Source: Prodigiosinella confusarubida (lineage in GTDB: Bacteria; Pseudomonadota; Gammaproteobacteria; Enterobacterales; Enterobacteriaceae). Taken from it: 64,000 bases of DNA. The notes below the pieces were generated by a model, which was not told the DNA's origin, did no database searches, and saw nothing but the letters and a program-made list of their open reading frames with translations. The translations under genes were made by a program, and so were the position numbers. How positions within the stretch are numbered: the stretch's first letter is position 1; the number at the start of each line of letters is the position of its first letter. This document shows positions 26,672-35,353 of this stretch, piece by piece. Location of the stretch: the NCBI RefSeq assembly GCF_002847015.1, contig NZ_CP025085.1, forward strand, positions 558,001 through 622,000, in the 5' to 3' direction.

Positions 26672-27295
26672 TTAAGTTTTAAATAAGTGTTTGATGACAC
26701 CGTTTATTGTCTCCGATAGTCGTTTGTAGTCAATCTTATCCTCGTTGGCCCTGGTGACTACATGTTGAGATAATCCACTGAAAATTAACGCTATAATATC
26801 CATCTTTCCACTCAACTTTCGGAACTCCTCCGCGTTGCTGGTGTTTGACCTTTTAATCAATTGCTCGTCAAATTGTGCAGCGATATTTTTATGCGATAAT
26901 TGAAGCAATTTAGCAACGCTCGGATTACGTGCCGCCTCGGCAACAATTTCTAGCCATAATCCTACAAAATCAAGGGAAGTATGATGCTCAATCATTCTTT
27001 CGGTTTGCCTGGTCAGAGAATCAACTAACGCTTCATCGGGTGGAGCAGCGGCGATGTCATTCACGAGTTCCAGTAGCGTGTGTTCCTGCTGTGCCACCAG
27101 TGCTTCAACGATCGCTTCTTTGTTAGCAAAATGATAGTAGATATGCCCTGGGCTCATGCCAGCAGCTTTAGAAATTTTGGCTATGCTGCAACCATGAAAA
27201 CCCTCTTTCCGGAAGCAATTTGCCGCTGCGTCTAGCACCTGTTTTCTGCGTTCCTTGGTTTTCTCCCGAACTTCATCGTCCTGGGGGTTACTCAT
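26672..27295 (-). CDS. TetR-family transcriptional regulator
   Basis: A 207-residue regulator. The N-terminal TetR helix-turn-helix is clear: AAANCFRKEGFHGCSIAKIS and AAGMSPGHIYYHFANKEAIV (about residues 24-65). The remaining helical part is a ligand-binding domain of the AcrR/BetI-like kind, with no close family I can name. An 18-base operator-like sequence lies 52 bases upstream and recurs ahead of the RND operon at 29165, so self-regulation and control of the efflux pump are likely. It is transcribed away from the pump. Confidence 0.85.
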   Translation of the reverse strand: MSNPQDDEVREKTKERRKQVLDAAANCFRKEGFHGCSIAKISKAAGMSPGHIYYHFANKEAIVEALVAQQEHTLLELVNDIAAAPPDEALVDSLTRQTERMIEHHTSLDFVGLWLEIVAEAARNPSVAKLLQLSHKNIAAQFDEQLIKRSNTSNAEEFRKLSGKMDIIALIFSGLSQHVVTRANEDKIDYKRLSETINGVIKHLFKT

Positions 27296-27967
27296 GGATT
27301 TCTCCTGTTTAGTAATTCTTGCAGGTTTTAAATTAGTATGAATATACTAGAATGAATATTCAACCTAATAAGGGTGGTAGTAATATTTGCTTTTCTTCGC
27401 CCTGTTTGGACAAGTTTAACCATATGACTAATGCTGGCACTCTCACTGGACACGATCGCTCTCTGCATCCACTCAGGGACGGTTTTCATGAGGAGTGTAA
27501 CGTTAACGTTAAGAGAATTAAATGTCACGCTCACTTCAAAGCTTCATGGTCCACAACATCTCATTGAGTAGCTGAAATAAAGCATCAGATCAGGGGGTAT
27601 TTCAAAAACACTTATTCCACAAGGATAGCATGGTCAATGTGGGACACACTGTACAAGATCAATCTCACATTTTGCCAAGACAAGCTAGCAAGAGAGTGAT
27701 GGTTTCTTTATTACGGTCGGTAAGGTATCTCCTACCCCAAAGCCGTAAGTAGGTCATTGGGGACTATGCCTATCGCAACCGTATTGGCGATTTTTGATAT
27801 TCCACGGTTTAACGTTTTGATTGCGAGTTGGTTCAGTAAAGAGAAAAAACGCATTAATAAAGTAGAACATCCCGGAGGCCTGACGAAGCAATGTGCGTTG
27901 GGCTAGCAAGCATAATTCTCGCTATTAAATCAAAAAGTTATTGAGTTAATGTTGGGGAGATTAATCA
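27296..27967. other. Intergenic region between the two TetR-family genes
   Basis: These 672 bases hold the operator-like site near 27355 and an AACGTTAACGTT palindrome near 27500. A 46-codon reading frame at 27766-27906 (MPIATVLAIFDIPRFNVLIA...) could not be assigned. A GGGGAGA ribosome site stands seven bases before the GTG of the second regulator. No longer gene is supported. Confidence 0.4.
27347..27364. promoter_or_regulatory. Operator-like site upstream of the TetR gene
   Basis: CTAGAATGAATATTCAAC carries the dyad GAAT-n4-ATTC and agrees at 13 of 18 positions with TTAGAATAAACATTCTAA at 29165-29182 in front of the efflux operon. Occurrence in front of both promoters suggests one repressor acting on both. 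Confidence 0.55.
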
Positions 27968-28609
27968 GTGGTAAAACGCAAAAAAGTCGCAGCGGAAGAG
28001 ACTCGCGAGCAGATCCTTGACGCTGCCGAGCAATGTTTCCGAGATGTGGGAGTGGCGCGCACTACACTACAGATGATCGCTGTACGGGCCGGTTGTACCC
28101 GTGGGGCCATATACTGGCATTTTACTGAAAAACAAGATCTTTTACGAGAGATCATAAACAGGGTGCCTCTGTTGCTGTTCAGCCAGTTGGAGAGGATATG
28201 CGTGGCCGCTAAGCCTGTAGCTGAGTTACATCGTTGCCTCACTCGCAATTTGGAGGACATTCAAAACGACAGGCATCTACGTAATGTGGTCGAGATTATG
28301 ATCTTCAGAGGTGAATGCTTTGAAGAAACAAACAATGCATTCTTAGCGGGGAAAGAGGGTGACAATAAGTTTTTGCAACTGCTGGTCAGTATTTTCGATT
28401 CTGGTAAAGCGCGGGGAGAGATTAAAACCACCATCCCGACGAAGACGCTGGCTTGTCTGACGTTCTTCGTTTTCACCGGTGCGCTGAAGTCTTGCATTTT
28501 GATGCCGCCGGACTGTTGGGCGGTCCAGGAAGGTCAATCTGTACTACAATTTGTATTCGATATTGCCCATGAAAATACCAAGACATGTCATCGCGGTAAT
28601 GTTGGATAA
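27968..28609 (+). CDS. TetR/AcrR-family repressor
   Basis: A 213-residue regulator starting with GTG at 27968, seven bases after GGGGAGA. AAEQCFRDVGVARTTLQMIA and AGCTRGAIYWHFTEKQDLL form the AcrR-type helix-turn-helix, very like the AcrR/TtgR/MtrR group that controls RND pumps; the C-terminal domain (LRNVVEIMIFRGECFEE...) also fits that group. It is in the same direction as the efflux operon and 600 bases before it, so it is the second candidate repressor of the pump. Confidence 0.88.
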   Translation: MVKRKKVAAEETREQILDAAEQCFRDVGVARTTLQMIAVRAGCTRGAIYWHFTEKQDLLREIINRVPLLLFSQLERICVAAKPVAELHRCLTRNLEDIQNDRHLRNVVEIMIFRGECFEETNNAFLAGKEGDNKFLQLLVSIFDSGKARGEIKTTIPTKTLACLTFFVFTGALKSCILMPPDCWAVQEGQSVLQFVFDIAHENTKTCHRGNVG

Positions 28610-29206
28610 AAGCGATTTATCCATTGACCGGGTGATGCTTTCTTCTGTGCCCGGCTACCTTCAACCCACAGGCCGGTTCCGTTTGTGTATGTTATAAGCG
28701 AGTGACGGGCTGACATGATGCCGATGAGATAATAAGCGAAGCTGTTTTCGGCGTGAGGCAAAAAGGTTCGTTTATTCCGATTGTTGGGCCCAGGGCGGCT
28801 TCGCTTTTACGACCGAAATGCCGCTGGTGGACATTTTTCAACGTTTCTTCCCGTTGCTGGGTCAGTGCCTTGTTTGCTGTCAATTTCGCGCAACGGTCAT
28901 TTCGTTTTACCTGCCATCCAATGACATTTTAAGCCGCTTCCCAAGCCGATCATCCCGTTTTTTGTTTGCGCCATATGACGACTCTGGCTCTACAAACGAT
29001 CAGGGTTTGAAGGCCCGCAATTGTCATTTCTGCAGTGAGCTGTGGCCACTATGAAAGGCGATGTGGATGACGTTACTGCGCCAATTCACCAAGGATTTTT
29101 ACATTTGGTAACTATTTTTTTTGTGCTTCGACACTTATTGACGCAACATGATGTTGCACACAACTTAGAATAAACATTCTAATTTCTTTGGGGTAATATA
29201 TTCATT
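28610..29206. other. Intergenic region before the RND efflux operon
   Basis: I see no convincing gene in these 597 bases. The frames are broken by stops on both strands. The last 50 bases contain the operator-like dyad and the A+T-rich promoter region of the pump. The middle part looks like decayed coding sequence of unknown origin. Confidence 0.4.
29165..29182. promoter_or_regulatory. Perfect dyad operator in the efflux operon promoter
   Basis: TTAGAAT-AAAC-ATTCTAA is a perfect 7-base inverted repeat ending 24 bases before the adaptor ATG, a normal place for a TetR-type repressor to block RNA polymerase. See the related site at 27347-27364. Confidence 0.7.
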
Positions 29207-30340
29207 ATGCGGTATACATTATCAGTACTTTTTCTGAGCATGCTGCTGATCGCCTGCGATCGTTCTACCAACAATGGGGCGCCAGCAGCACCGGTGCCTC
29301 ATGTTAGCGTTGTAACGCTTAAAACCCAGCCCATAACCTTGTTCGCAAGTCTGCCCGGCCGCACAACCGCGGTACGCAGCGCTGAAGTGCGGCCGCAGGT
29401 GGATGGCATTATTCTTAAACGACTGTTTACCGAAGGTACCGAGGTCAAGGCCGGTCAACAGCTGTATCAGATCGATCCCGCCAGCTATCAGGCCGCTTAT
29501 GACAAAGCGGTAGCGACTTATATTAACGCCGAATCAGTGGTCAAGCGCTACAAGCCACTCGCCGCCGCCCACGCGGTGAGCGCCCAGACTTATGACGACG
29601 CGGTGGCTACCGCCGCCGAAGCCAAGGCCGATGTGCAAACCGCGCGCGTGAATCTGGAATACACTAAGGTTCGTGCACCGATATCCGGACGCATCGGTCG
29701 TTCACTCTTTACCGAGGGGGCCTTGGTCACCAATGGCCAGAGTAGCTATCTCACCACCATCTCCCAGCTTGATCCGATCTATGTCGACGTCAGTGAGTCA
29801 TCACTGGAACTGCTGCGCCTGCGGCGTGCGCTGAGAGAGGGAAAGCTAAAAGCGCCGAGTAACCATGAGGCTGCGGTGCGACTTATACTTGAAGATGGCA
29901 GCAGTTATAACCAGGAAGGACGGTTAGATTTCTCCGAAGTGACCGTGGATGAAGGCACCGGCTCGGTCACGTTGCGCGCCACTTTCCCTAACCCACATCA
30001 TGTCCTGCTTCCCGGCATGTTCGTCCATGCCCGTCTGGTGCAAGGCGTTCAGGAAGAGGGCATTCTGGCACCTCAAGAGGCCATCGGCCATGACATCAAG
30101 GGCCGTCCTTATGCCTATGTAGTCAAAACTGACAACACTGTCGAGCAACGTTATATCACTACAGGTGAGATGAGCAATGGTCAGTGGCAGGTCACCAGTG
30201 GCCTCAGTGCTGGTGAAAAAGTGGTCACTGAAGGCATCCAGAATATCCATACTGGCATGAAAGTTTCCTCCAGCGAGCAGAGCAAGACGGATGATTCCAA
30301 TACCGTCCAATTATCCATGACCGATCCGTCGGCGCAATAA
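29207..30340 (+). CDS. RND efflux periplasmic adaptor (AcrA/MexA-like)
   Basis: A 377-residue membrane fusion lipoprotein: lipobox LLIAC (Cys17), then the biotinyl-lipoyl half motifs [20 protein letters not shown] and [20 protein letters not shown] around an alpha-helical hairpin ([20 protein letters not shown]). A beta-barrel and membrane-proximal domain follow. The pattern is that of AcrA/MexA adaptors that bridge an AcrB-type pump to a TolC/OprM channel. It is the first gene of a three-gene operon. Base composition looks richer in G+C than the pst or ape genes, which hints at transfer. The drug range cannot be told from sequence. Confidence 0.93.
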
Positions 30341-30350
30341 GGGGCTATTG

Positions 30351-33300
30351 ATGTCAAAGTTCTTTATCGAACGCCCAATTTTCGCCTGGGTGATCGCCAT
30401 TGTGGTGATGTTGGCGGGGGTGCTCTCTATCCTCGATCTTCCGATCAACCAGTACCCAAACATCGCGCCGCCGGCGATTCAGGTGTCGGTAACCTATCCA
30501 GGGGCTAGCGCCGAGACAGTACAAAAAACAGTAGTACAGGTGATAGAGCAGCAGCTCAACGGTATTGACAACCTGCGCTACATTGAATCCAGCAGCAGCA
30601 GCGATGGCAGCGCTAGCATTATTGTTACCTTCGATCAGGGCACTGATCCGGATATCGCCCAGGTACAGGTGCAGAACAAGGTGTCCCTGGCGGAATCGCA
30701 GTTGCCGACCGAAGCCACAGAACAGGGTATCCGGGTAGCGAAATACCAGTCTAACTTCATGATGGTCGTTAGCTTGATTTCCACCGACGGTAAAATGACT
30801 GACGCTGACTTAGGCAACCTTTTGGTCTCCAAACTGGAAGATCCCATCGTGCGTACCAAGGGGGTGGGCGACTTTCTGGTTATGGGGGCGGAATACGCCA
30901 TGCGTATCTGGCTGGACCCGGCGAAACTGTATAAGTATTCATTGGTACCAAGCGACATTAGCACCGCAATTTCGCAGCAAAACGTCCAGGTGTCTTCAGG
31001 CAAACTGGGTGGTTTACCGACAGTGGCAAATGCTAAATTCAGCGCCACCATTATTGGCAAAACCCGGCTGGAAACAGTGCAGCAATTCCAAAATATCTTG
31101 CTGAAGGTCAACAGCGACGGATCACAAGTGCGGCTCAAGGATGTTGCGACGGTCGATCTCGGACCGGAGAGCTACAGCATTTCTTCCACTTTTGACGGCA
31201 AGCCCTCCACCGGTATTGCACTGCGTCTCGCGAGCGGGGCTAACTTGCTCGACACTGCTAATGCAGTGCGCGCTACCCTTACTGGCCTTGAGTCTTCTTT
31301 GCCGGAAGGCGTGAAGATTGAATTTCCGTACGATACCTCGCCAGTGGTCAGCGCTTCCATTGAGGAAGTGGTTAAGACGTTATTGGAAGCCATCGTGTTG
31401 GTGTTCATGGTGATGCTGCTGTTCCTGCAGAATCTGCGTGCCACTCTGGTCACCACCATGGTGGTGCCGGTTGTGCTGCTCGGCACTTTCGGCATACTGT
31501 TTGCCTGCGGTTACTCTATCAACACACTCACCATGTTCGGTATGGTGCTGGCAATAGGCTTGCTGGTAGATGATGCCATCGTGGTAGTGGAAAACGTTGA
31601 ACGCGTAATGCACGATGAGAAATTGGGGCCGAAGGAAGCCACTATCAAATCGATGCAGCAGATCCAAGGGGCCTTATTCGGCATCGCCATGGTGCTGTCG
31701 GCGGTACTGGTGCCGATGGCGTTCTTCAGCGGCTCCACCGGTATCATCTACCGTCAGTTCTCCATAACCATCGTATCGGCGATGGCGTTGTCTGTGTTGA
31801 TGGCGTTGATTTTCACCCCAGCGCTGTGTGCCACGATACTCAAACCATCGGCCGGTGAACGATCAACCACCGGCTTCTCCGGTGCTTTTAACCGCATGTT
31901 TGATCGCGGGACAGTGAATTATACCCGCGGTGTCGGCCATGTCATCAGTAAGCGCTCACTGTTCCTACTACTGTATTTGATTATCGTCGGGACTACCGGC
32001 TACCTATTTACTCGCGTGCCGACGACATTTCTACCCGATGAAGACCAGGCTACCTTGATGCTCCAGGTTAGCCTTCCAGCCAATGCTTCTGCCGAACGCA
32101 CTCAGCAAGTTGTGCAAAAGGTCAAGGACTATCTGCTGACCGATGAGAAGGATATCGTCAGCTCGGTATTTGCTGCCAACGGCTTTAGCTTCGCCGGTCG
32201 CGGTCAGAACACGGCTATGGCCTTCGTGCGTCTCAAAGACTGGAGCGAGCGCCCTAAAGCCAGCCAAAGCGTTCAGGCGCTGGCGGGGCGCATCATGCAA
32301 CATTTCGCTACGCTGAAACAGGGTCAGGTTATTGCGCTCGTGCCGCCGGCGGTGATGGAGCTCGGCAACGCCACCGGCTTCGACTTTTATCTCCAGGATA
32401 CTAACAGTCAGGGGCATGATGCACTGGTGGCCGCGATGAATCAGTTCCTGTCGATGGCCCGACAGGATCCTCGGTTGTCCATGGTCCGCCATAACGGTAT
32501 GGAGGATGAACCGCAATACCACCTGGTGATCGACGACGAGCGAGCTCGTGCGCTTGGGCTCAGTCTGGAGGATATCAATGACACACTGTCCACTGCCTGG
32601 GGCTCCAGCTATGTTAACCAGTTCATGTACCAGGGACGGGTCAAGGACGTCTATCTACAAGGTAAAGCCACTTCGCGCGTGACGCCGGAGGATCTCAATC
32701 AGTGGTACTTCCGTAACAGCAGCAACCAGATGGTGCCGTACTCGGCGTTCGGTAGTGGTAAATGGGGCTATGGTTCGCCTCGCTTTGAGCGCTTCAACGG
32801 TCTGTCGGCGGTGGAAATCATGGGGTCGCCTGCGGCTGGCTACAGTTCCGGCGATGCGGTGAAAGCGGTGGATGAAATTGCCGCCAAACTGCCTAAAGGT
32901 TTCCGTGTTCAATGGCATGGCCTGTCCTATGAGGAGCAAAGCGCCGGTTCCCAGACTACCGCGCTATATACTCTTTCGGTGCTGATGGTGTTTTTGTGTC
33001 TGGCAGCGCTGTACGAGAGCTGGTCGATTCCGTTCTCGGTATTGCTGGTAGTGCCGCTTGGGGTGCTCGGCACCATCGGCGCGGTGCTGCTGCGCGGACT
33101 GTCCAATGATGTATTTTTCCAGGTGGGTCTGCTGACCACCGTCGGGCTTGCGGCCAAGAACGCTATTCTGATCGTCGAATTTGCCAAGGAATTGCATGAA
33201 CGGGACGGCAAAGATATCGTCGAGGCCGCTATTGATGCTGCACGTCTGCGTATCCGGCCCATCATCATGACTTCAATGGCATTCGTGCTCGGGGTACTAC

Positions 33301-33488
33301 CGCTGACCATTTCCCACGGCGCCGGCGCCGGCAGTCAGCACTCGATCGGCACCGCTGTTGCTGGTGGTATGATCACCGCTACCTTCCTGGCCATTTTCTT
33401 TGTACCGATGTTTTATGTTGTCGTGGTGCGTCTGTTTGACCGCCGACGGACCAAAACGCCGGCCACCGAGGTGCAACAACATGATTGA
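30351..33488 (+). CDS. RND multidrug efflux transporter (AcrB/MexB-like)
   Basis: A 1045-residue inner-membrane proton/drug antiporter of the HAE1 family, near AcrB length (1049). It starts [20 protein letters not shown]. The proton-relay aspartates are in [13 protein letters not shown] and the Lys partner in [13 protein letters not shown]; the porter domain contains [10 protein letters not shown]. The C-terminal end is hydrophobic then basic. A TTG at 30348 is a weaker start. The stop overlaps the channel gene by eight bases, so all three pump parts come from one mRNA. Confidence 0.95.
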
Positions 33489-34905
33489 TCACAGTAAGAC
33501 ATACGCGCGGAACGTGATGATCCCGGCGCTTCTGGCACTGACTATTACCGGTTGCAGCCTGCAGCCTGAATATAAACGACCAGCGCTACCGGTCACTAAC
33601 CACTATTGGGAAAGCACCATCAATGGCGGCACTAGCGCGTCGGATTTAGGTTGGCGGCAATTTTTTACCGAGCCAGAGTTGCGTCAACTGATCCAGTTGG
33701 CGCTAGACAATAATCGCGACTTACGGGTGGCGGCGCTGAATGTCGAAAGCGACCAGGCTCAATTTCGCGTCGAGCGCGCAGCACTCATGCCGACAGTGAG
33801 TGCCGGAGCCGATATGACCTCGGCGCACGTGCCTGGTAATCTGTACAGCACCAAGAGCACCGGACCGGCGACCTATCAACAGTATGAGGCCAATCTGGGC
33901 GTGACATCATGGGAGCTGGACTTCTTCGGCCGAGTGCGTAGCTTGCGCGACCAGGCGCTGGAAACCTATCTGTCCACCGAGGCAACGGCCAAAGCCACGC
34001 GTATCAGTCTGATGGCAGAGGTCGCTTCAGACTATATGACGTTATGCGCCGACAGCGATTTGCTGCGCCTGGCACACCAGACCGTCGATAGCCAACGCGC
34101 CTCCTACGAACTGACCAAGAGGAGCTACGACAATGGGGCCAGCACCGAGCAGGATTTGGCGCAGGCCGAAACCACTGTCAGAAGCGCTGAAGCCGATGTG
34201 GCGCAATATGCCAGGCAGGTACGTCAGGATGCCGACGCGCTGCGGTTGTTGCTGGGAACTGAATTGCCCGCCGGTTTGGTGAAACAGGCACGGCTGGACC
34301 GTGACTGGCACTTTCCGGATCTGCCAGTCGGCCTGCCGTCGGAGCTGTTGACCCGCCGGCCGGATATCGTCGCTGCCGAACATACCCTTAAAGCGGCCAA
34401 TGCCAATATCGGCGCGGCGCGTGCGGCGTTCTTCCCTACCATTAGCCTGACGGCGTCCGGCGGTTCGGCCTCGTCGAGCCTGGGTCATCTGCTGGAAGGC
34501 GGCACCGCGGCCTGGTCGTTCGTGCCCAGTATCAGCGTGCCGATTTTCGACGGCGGCAAGAACCGCGCTAATCTGGATATTGCCAAGGTATCAAAGCGGA
34601 TCGATGTGGCCAACTATGAGAAGACTATTCAGACAGCGTTCAAGGAGGTTTCAGATGCGCTGGCTGGACGGGCTACCTATAAGGACGAATTGACCGCGCG
34701 CATCCAGGATACCAACGCTAACCAGCGTAACTACGATCTGTCCCAGATGCGTTTTCGCGCTGGCGTGGACAATTACCTGAATGTGCTGGTTGCCCAACGT
34801 TCACTATATCAGGCCCAACAGAGTCAGATCACGACTCGACTCAACGAACTGAACCAGCAGATCACGCTGTATAAGGTGCTGGGTGGAGGCTGGAAAGCAG
34901 ACTAA
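33481..34905 (+). CDS. RND efflux outer-membrane channel (OprM/NodT family)
   Basis: A 474-residue lipoprotein precursor with lipobox TITGC (Cys25) followed by [12 protein letters not shown], the typical OprM start. Two outer-membrane efflux repeats follow, including [60 protein letters not shown] and [14 protein letters not shown]. It supplies the pump with its own outer-membrane exit instead of relying on TolC. It overlaps the transporter stop. An upstream in-frame extension lies wholly in the transporter gene and is rejected. Confidence 0.94.
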
Positions 34906-35141: not shown

Positions 35142-35353
35142 TGCAATTGTACTTTTATCGGAAAGTAATTCTTATATCAATTAAACTGAGATTTAATTTT
35201 TTACGCGGAGTTGATAAATAAAGCATGCCGCGACTATGGTTTCTTATTTTGAGAAACCTATTGCCTAAAATCAGTAAGGATATAAATCATCGATTGGCTT
35301 CAGTCTTGCAACCCATAGGGTATGGCTTATTCATTGATGGTACGGAGAATAAC

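What the first reader, a model, noticed from the sequence alone, without database searches (positions are those of the whole stretch)
27347..29182. One operator-like sequence in front of both a tetR gene and the RND pump
CTAGAATGAATATTCAAC (27347) and TTAGAATAAACATTCTAA (29165) share 13 of 18 positions and the same GAAT-n4-ATTC dyad, although they lie 1.8 kb apart with another TetR-family gene between. This suggests the minus-strand TetR protein represses itself and the pump.
Basis: partly seen in the sequence, partly recalled or inferred. Interest (0 to 1): 0.6.

Follow-up and report, generated by a model that had tools for sequence, protein, structure and literature searches.

The report
Orphaned repressor adopted a neighbouring pump
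A repressor gene that has lost its own drug-efflux pump (worn remnants of the pump genes are still there) sits near a different pump whose control site has come to match that repressor's, which looks like a natural case of a gene switch being rewired to a new target, although binding has not been tested.

Summary
The site at 27347 is half of two overlapping dyads (27333-27364). That tandem site is conserved in five other genera and on a Klebsiella plasmid, where the same TetR (TetR1) is divergent from its own RND pump ("system A"). In the window that pump is gone: worn remnants of its two genes lie between the tandem site and the second TetR gene (TetR2), also a system A gene. The intact pump at 29207 belongs to another clade ("system B"). 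In 20 of 28 related loci it has a GAGAA-type dyad like the published E. coli EefR operator, and in six loci an EefR-like TetR gene lies just downstream; the window lacks that gene there. In the window's genome and its sister the dyad carries T and A at positions 2 and 17, the letters of TetR1's operator. Best reading: TetR1 represses itself (probably TetR2 too) at the tandem site and has taken over pump B through two mirror-image substitutions in an older operator. Self-repression is well supported by comparison; control of the pump is likely but unproven, as no binding data exist. Interest 0.5; new variant of a known kind.

The parts
26672..27295 (-). TetR1: TetR-family regulator, 207 aa; recognition-helix stretch MSPGHIYYHF, identical in the five orthologues aligned
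   Evidence: Pfam TetR_N 1.6e-16; best solved relatives 6ayh and 6ayi, the latter UidR; orthologues 56-64%, plasmid copy 61%; helix
27333..27350 (.). first (TetR1-proximal) dyad of the tandem operator, TTAGTATGAATATACTAG
   Evidence: conserved in orthologous loci; two changes in sister G060
   Evidence: 18 of 18 letters kept in sister genome G060
27319..27348 (+). putative rightward promoter TTGCAG-N18-TATACT, once for the lost pump, now reading towards TetR2
   Evidence: TTGCAA-N18-TATACT in 4 of 5 other species and in G060; Serratia has N17 and TATTCT; not found by the consensus scan
27335..27363 (-). putative TetR1 promoter TTGAAT-N17-CATACT inside the tandem operator
   Evidence: read by eye; not found by the consensus scan
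27392..27694 (+). worn remnant of the 5' part of the lost membrane-fusion gene (MFP1); aligned range 27392-27664 over four species, to 27694 with Samsonia
   Evidence: local alignment scores 28-37.5 against 5 of 5 species, largest of 60 shuffles 20.5; blastn up to 9e-13 with the operator stretch included
27752..27857 (+). worn remnant of the 3' end of the lost RND gene (RND1)
   Evidence: scores 22-38 against 5 of 5 species, largest of 60 shuffles 19.5; tblastn 1.2e-6 with the plasmid RND1
27968..28609 (+). TetR2: AcrR-like TetR regulator (below the curated cut-offs of the named families), formerly the gene after RND1
   Evidence: orthologues directly after RND1 in Serratia, Samsonia, Acerihabitans and on the plasmid
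29165..29182 (.). pump operator, perfect dyad TTAGAATAAACATTCTAA
   Evidence: sister genome TTAGAATGATCATTCTAA; log2(A/B) +11.4
29207..30340 (+). MFP2: RND periplasmic adaptor of pump B
   Evidence: NCBIfam RND_mfp; orthologues 54-71% outside the window's species
30351..33488 (+). RND2: RND permease of pump B
   Evidence: NCBIfam efflux RND permease; in the 26-row system B clade, support 100/99
33475..34905 (+). OMF2: outer-membrane factor of pump B
   Evidence: NCBIfam outer_NodT; the next listed gene, at 35225, reads as a substrate-binding protein, not a TetR

Best explanation
TetR1 is the repressor of an old cluster (TetR1 | tandem operator | MFP1-RND1-TetR2). In this lineage MFP1 and RND1 were deleted in place, leaving TetR1, its tandem operator and TetR2. 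A different pump (MFP2-RND2-OMF2) lies just downstream. Many of its relatives carry an EefR-type operator, and several carry an EefR-like repressor gene that is absent from this spot here. Two mirror-image substitutions (G2 to T, C17 to A) turned that operator into a TetR1-type site, so TetR1 now most likely represses itself, probably TetR2, and pump B, released by an unknown ligand. Shown: anatomy, remnants, clade membership, operator classes. Inferred: TetR1 binding at both sites, repression, the ancestral state and order of events, the ligand.
For: (1) The five orthologous loci found in genome contigs (73 loci, 5 of them above 50% identity) all have TetR1 divergent from MFP1-RND1 with the tandem site between. 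A Klebsiella plasmid, 1 of 72,556 records searched, has the same layout and operator. (2) Remnants of MFP1 5' and RND1 3' lie between the tandem operator and TetR2. (3) RND2 falls in the system B clade (26 rows, 100/99), apart from the system A clade (5 rows, 100/99). (4) Before MFP2, the TetR1-type dyad TTAGAAT-n4-ATTCTAA has 0 mismatches in window and sister and at least 2 in each of the 28 other loci; 20 of those 28 have a (T/C)GAGA(A/G) dyad as first or second best in a scan for symmetry that ignored base identity. (5) Half-site matrices: window pump site +11.4, sister +7.8; type A sites left out one species at a time +9.3 to +24.2; type B left out one at a time -9.2 to -18.5. (6) In G060 the EefR-like gene at 2.33 Mb is frameshifted, yet the pump dyad there is perfect. 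(7) In G165 (Acerihabitans), which keeps pump A and an EefR-like gene after pump B, pump B's dyad is of the GAG type, CGAGAACGATCATTCTCA. (8) TetR1 is open in both genomes of the species, dN/dS 0.22.
Against: No binding data. The two substitutions also create better -10-like hexamers (TCTCAT to TCTAAT, GAGAAT to TAGAAT; by eye), so selection on the promoter could explain them in part. An intact EefR-like repressor exists at 2.33 Mb in the window's genome (54% to the one after pump B in G165) and might tolerate the changed letters. Only two genomes carry the changed operator and they count as one species, so it is one event. The sister's pump site (+7.8) scores below every left-out type A site (lowest +9.3). 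The uniform G/C at positions 2/17 in type B is partly built in, since the class was named by its GAG letters. Eight of 28 system B loci show no such dyad. dN/dS of TetR1 rests on few changes. The frameshifts in G060 could be sequencing errors.
Confidence: 0.6

Rival explanations
1. The pump site is still an EefR-type operator, bound in trans by the EefR-like repressor encoded at 2.33 Mb; the likeness to TetR1's site is incidental.
For: That repressor is intact in the window's genome and 54% identical to the one encoded after pump B in G165; its recognition helix LSVGQIYRYF equals that of the system B repressors of G165, G387 and G327 and of E. coli EefR.
Against: The window site has T/A at positions 2/17 where the EefR-type sites collected have G/C (21 of 21, a class named by those letters). 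The published gel shifts lost binding with every palindrome mutant described, one a single substitution (PMC12482432, section 20; which letters is in a figure I did not see). The repressor gene is frameshifted in G060 while the dyad is perfect. Its own promoter keeps a TGAGAATGA half-site.
Confidence: 0.2
2. TetR2, the gene directly upstream and co-directional, is the pump's regulator, and the 29165 dyad is TetR2's site or unrelated.
For: Adjacency; AcrR-like protein whose relatives include repressors of RND pumps.
Against: TetR2 comes from system A, where it follows RND1. TetR2 matches at E 1e-25 were found in 5 of 392 genomes, 2 of them the window's species; of the 25 other genomes with pump B only G165 is among them, and there TetR2 is in the system A locus, so the pump's dyad exists without TetR2 nearby.
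Confidence: 0.12
3. The two substitutions are drift or promoter tuning after loss of the local repressor, and nothing binds the dyad now.
For: Both changes are GC to AT and both improve -10-like hexamers (sequence).
Against: Arms identical in the sister genome while 2 of 4 spacer letters changed. In simulation only 0.0035% of two-substitution mutants of type B sites (0.006% with three or four substitutions) were both perfect dyads and TetR1-like at score 8 or more (the window site passes that score, the sister's 7.8 just misses it).
Confidence: 0.08

Closest known systems
EefR / eefRABCD of Escherichia coli (PMC12482432)
   Same: TetR-family autorepressor; 18-bp palindrome with AGAA-n6-TTCT core; RND pump with its own outer-membrane gene
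   Different: EefR's palindrome starts TGAG and its gene is co-directional with eefA. TetR1 has a different recognition helix. Pump B is not in the clade of E. coli EefB
System A loci: Serratia L056, Acerihabitans L057, Enterobacter mori L058, Kosakonia sacchari L059, Samsonia L060, Klebsiella plasmid NZ_CP055107 (L238)
   Same: TetR1 and tandem operator; TetR2 where I looked (Serratia, Samsonia, Acerihabitans, plasmid)
   Different: They keep MFP1-RND1 beside the operator; the window keeps only remnants
UidR (GusR) of enterobacteria
   Same: among the two closest solved structures to TetR1 (6ayh, 6ayi)
   Different: only about 140 residues aligned; regulates glucuronide genes (recalled), not a pump

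Membership tests
TetR family (TetR1) | N-terminal TetR_N helix-turn-helix | tested here: met
   PF00440, 60.2 bits, cut-off 24
System A repressor orthologue group | divergent from MFP1-RND1 | tested here: not met
   pump deleted in the window; remnants only. Orthology rests on 56-64% identity and the shared operator
System A repressor orthologue group | 14-bp-period tandem dyad beside TetR1 | tested here: met
EefR subfamily (for TetR1) | recognition helix LSVGQIYR and TGAGAA palindrome | tested here: not met
   TetR1 has MSPGHIYYHF and mostly TAG-type half-sites
System B pump | RND phylogenetic placement | tested here: met
System B pump | GAG-type dyad before MFP2 (common, not universal: 20 of 28) | tested here: not met
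   T/A at 2/17 in window and sister
TetR1 operator at 29165 | direct binding by TetR1 | not testable with these tools
   needs gel shift or footprint

The most novel reading that the evidence does not exclude
A natural transfer of a drug-efflux pump from one repressor to another: an orphaned repressor whose own pump was deleted took over a neighbouring pump by two mirror-image substitutions in that pump's existing operator, so the before and after states of an operator-specificity switch can be read in living relatives.
Probability: 0.5. Interest if true: 0.65.

Novelty: new variant of a known kind. Interest (0 to 1): 0.5.

Why it matters
TetR repressors next to efflux pumps are common. What is unusual here is that ancestral parts are readable: the old pump's remnants, the other operator class in relatives, and the changed operator. 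It would make the question of how repressors and operators re-pair directly testable with two proteins and two 18-bp sites. It also warns that a regulator lying beside a pump need not have been its original partner.

Tried and rejected
Rejected: that the pump is TetR1's ancestral partner (RND tree). Rejected: that one-mismatch copies elsewhere in the genome form a regulon; their number is no higher than the reversed control. Of these copies I looked at three: those at 671 kb and 1404 kb lie inside reading frames, the one at 1358.8 kb is intergenic and was not followed further. TGAGAANNNNNNTTCTCA is commoner than its reversed control in the genome (16 against 7 per strand at up to 1 mismatch), with exact sites at 28.8 kb and 4869 kb; I did not look at their surroundings, so targets of the 2.33 Mb repressor are open. 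Led nowhere: consensus promoter scan (no hit at either site); AraC remnant between TetR2 and MFP2 (none at E 0.5); an E. coli match for pump B (the 10 rows listed of 5,381 records name acrA, acrB and acrE). Not resolved: which named Serratia pump, if any, is system B (PMC6425002, PMC13228086: passages only). PMC12817139 and PMC6790063 on eef genes: passages only. Literature on operator take-over: (listings and abstract starts only) showed no report of this site or of this re-pairing; of the four sequence strings searched only the published EefR palindrome was found, in PMC12482432. My first half-site matrix counted two species twice; the figures reported are from the corrected run. Outputs were cut, so parts of those tables were not seen.

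Full report
Observation. The first is one half of a tandem: TTAGTATGAATATACTAG (27333-27350) and CTAGAATGAATATTCAAC (27347-27364) overlap by 4 bp. Motif counts alone are weak evidence. At two mismatches the window holds 16 matches against 17.1 expected. In the genome the exact motif occurs only at these two sites, with about 2.4 strand-matches expected by even composition (my arithmetic).

What TetR1 is. In genome contigs, 73 loci matched the protein; 5 are above 50% identity (56-64%) and I take them as orthologues: Serratia, Acerihabitans, Enterobacter mori, Kosakonia sacchari, Samsonia. In these 5 the gene is divergent from an RND adaptor-permease pair, and the tandem operator lies between them. 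In a sample of 392 family genomes, 5 carry TetR1 at E 1e-30, two of them the window's species. A conjugative Klebsiella plasmid, 1 of 72,556 records at E 1e-30, carries the cluster TetR1 | MFP-RND-TetR-helix-turn-helix gene-outer-membrane gene, with the same operator. I call this system A.

The deleted pump. TetR2 orthologues (5 of 392 genomes at E 1e-25) lie directly after RND1 in Serratia, Samsonia and Acerihabitans. In the window, TetR1 and TetR2 are only 0.67 kb apart. Between the tandem operator and TetR2, local alignments to the first 500 bp of MFP1 score 28-37.5, and to the last 300 bp of RND1 22-38, in 5 of 5 species; the largest of 60 plain shuffles was 20.5 and 19.5. The rest of MFP1 and of RND1 score 11-15.5, inside the shuffle range in 9 of 10 comparisons and half a point above the largest shuffle in one (E. 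mori MFP1). The plasmid RND1 finds its C-terminal end there at 1.2e-6. So the native pump was removed in place in an ancestor of this lineage; sister genome G060 is co-linear here.

The present pump. MFP2 orthologues occur in 27 of 392 family genomes at E 1e-118 or better, including the window's two. A tree of 33 RND proteins puts RND2 in a 26-row clade (100/99), apart from the 5-row system A clade (100/99) and from E. coli EefB with the genome's own 2.33 Mb pump (100/100). Before MFP2, 20 of 28 other loci have a (T/C)GAGA(A/G)-type dyad; 8 do not. Extended stretches were fetched for 24 of these 28 loci; the gene table of 19 could be read in full (one search was cut). In 6 of the 19 an EefR-like TetR gene lies just downstream of the pump genes (after the outer-membrane gene in 5; in G393 no outer-membrane frame was listed). 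The six corresponding promoters have the GAG-type dyad. In the window the next listed gene is a substrate-binding protein.

Which class is the 29165 site. Half-site matrices from 10 type A dyads (5 species, window and sister left out) and 14 distinct type B dyads (from 21 sites, E. coli EefR included) give log2(A/B) = +11.4 for the window's pump site and +7.8 for the sister's. Left-out type A sites score +9.3 to +24.2, left-out type B sites -9.2 to -18.5; the sister's site is thus on the A side but below the lowest A site. Positions 2/17 are T/A in 9 of 10 type A sites and G/C in 21 of 21 type B sites, the latter partly by definition of the class. Free of that circle: the TetR1-type dyad has 0 mismatches in window and sister and 2 or more in all 28 other loci. 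The sister's pump site equals the EefR palindrome of the E. coli record L206 except for these two letters. The published EefR gel shifts used TGAGAACGATCATTCTCA and lost binding with the palindrome mutants described (PMC12482432; passages and section 20). The window's TetR1 and its five orthologues share MSPGHIYYHF at the recognition helix; the EefR-like proteins aligned have LSVGQIYR or, in G111, LGAGQIYR.

How it most likely works. The tandem operator overlaps a rightward promoter-like pair (TTGCA-N18-TATACT) and a TetR1 promoter read by eye, so TetR1 binding would block both: self-repression, and repression of what is now the TetR2 transcript. At the pump, the single dyad would be bound by TetR1. 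Shown: anatomy, remnants, clades, operator classes. Inferred: binding, repression, ligand release, and that the pump's ancestral operator in this lineage was of the GAG type. I give self-repression about 0.85 and the combined model 0.6.

Rivals. The EefR-like repressor at 2.33 Mb is the main one; it is intact here but frameshifted in G060, where its RND gene is split as well, while the pump dyad there is perfect. The G060 frameshifts might be assembly errors. Promoter tuning could explain the substitutions singly, less easily as a mirror pair.

Known or new. Autorepressing TetR genes controlling RND pumps are ordinary. I found no report of this re-pairing (open-access papers only, listings). 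I rate it a new variant of a known kind.

Noticed in passing
G060:C1:3180000-3195000 (L237): In the sister genome the EefR-like repressor gene is frameshifted and the RND gene of the same cluster is split into two frames, while both are intact in the window's genome.
   Followed up: partly
L137:3190-3320: The genome's own EefR-type cluster at 2.33 Mb has half-sites TGAGAATGA and TCATTCTAA separated by 4 bp, a wider spacing than the E. coli palindrome.
   Followed up: no
L238 (NZ_CP055107.1:26805-41419): A conjugative Klebsiella plasmid from wastewater carries a system A efflux cluster with both TetR genes.
   Followed up: partly
L180:811-1578: A TetR1-like gene (37%) lies about 7 kb from a system B pump whose upstream dyad is degenerate (TAAGAATGAATGTGCTTG), a possible third arrangement.
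   Followed up: no
28610-29164: Half-kilobase spacer between TetR2 and the pump with no recognised gene; no remnant of the AraC-type gene that follows TetR2 in relatives was found.
   Followed up: partly
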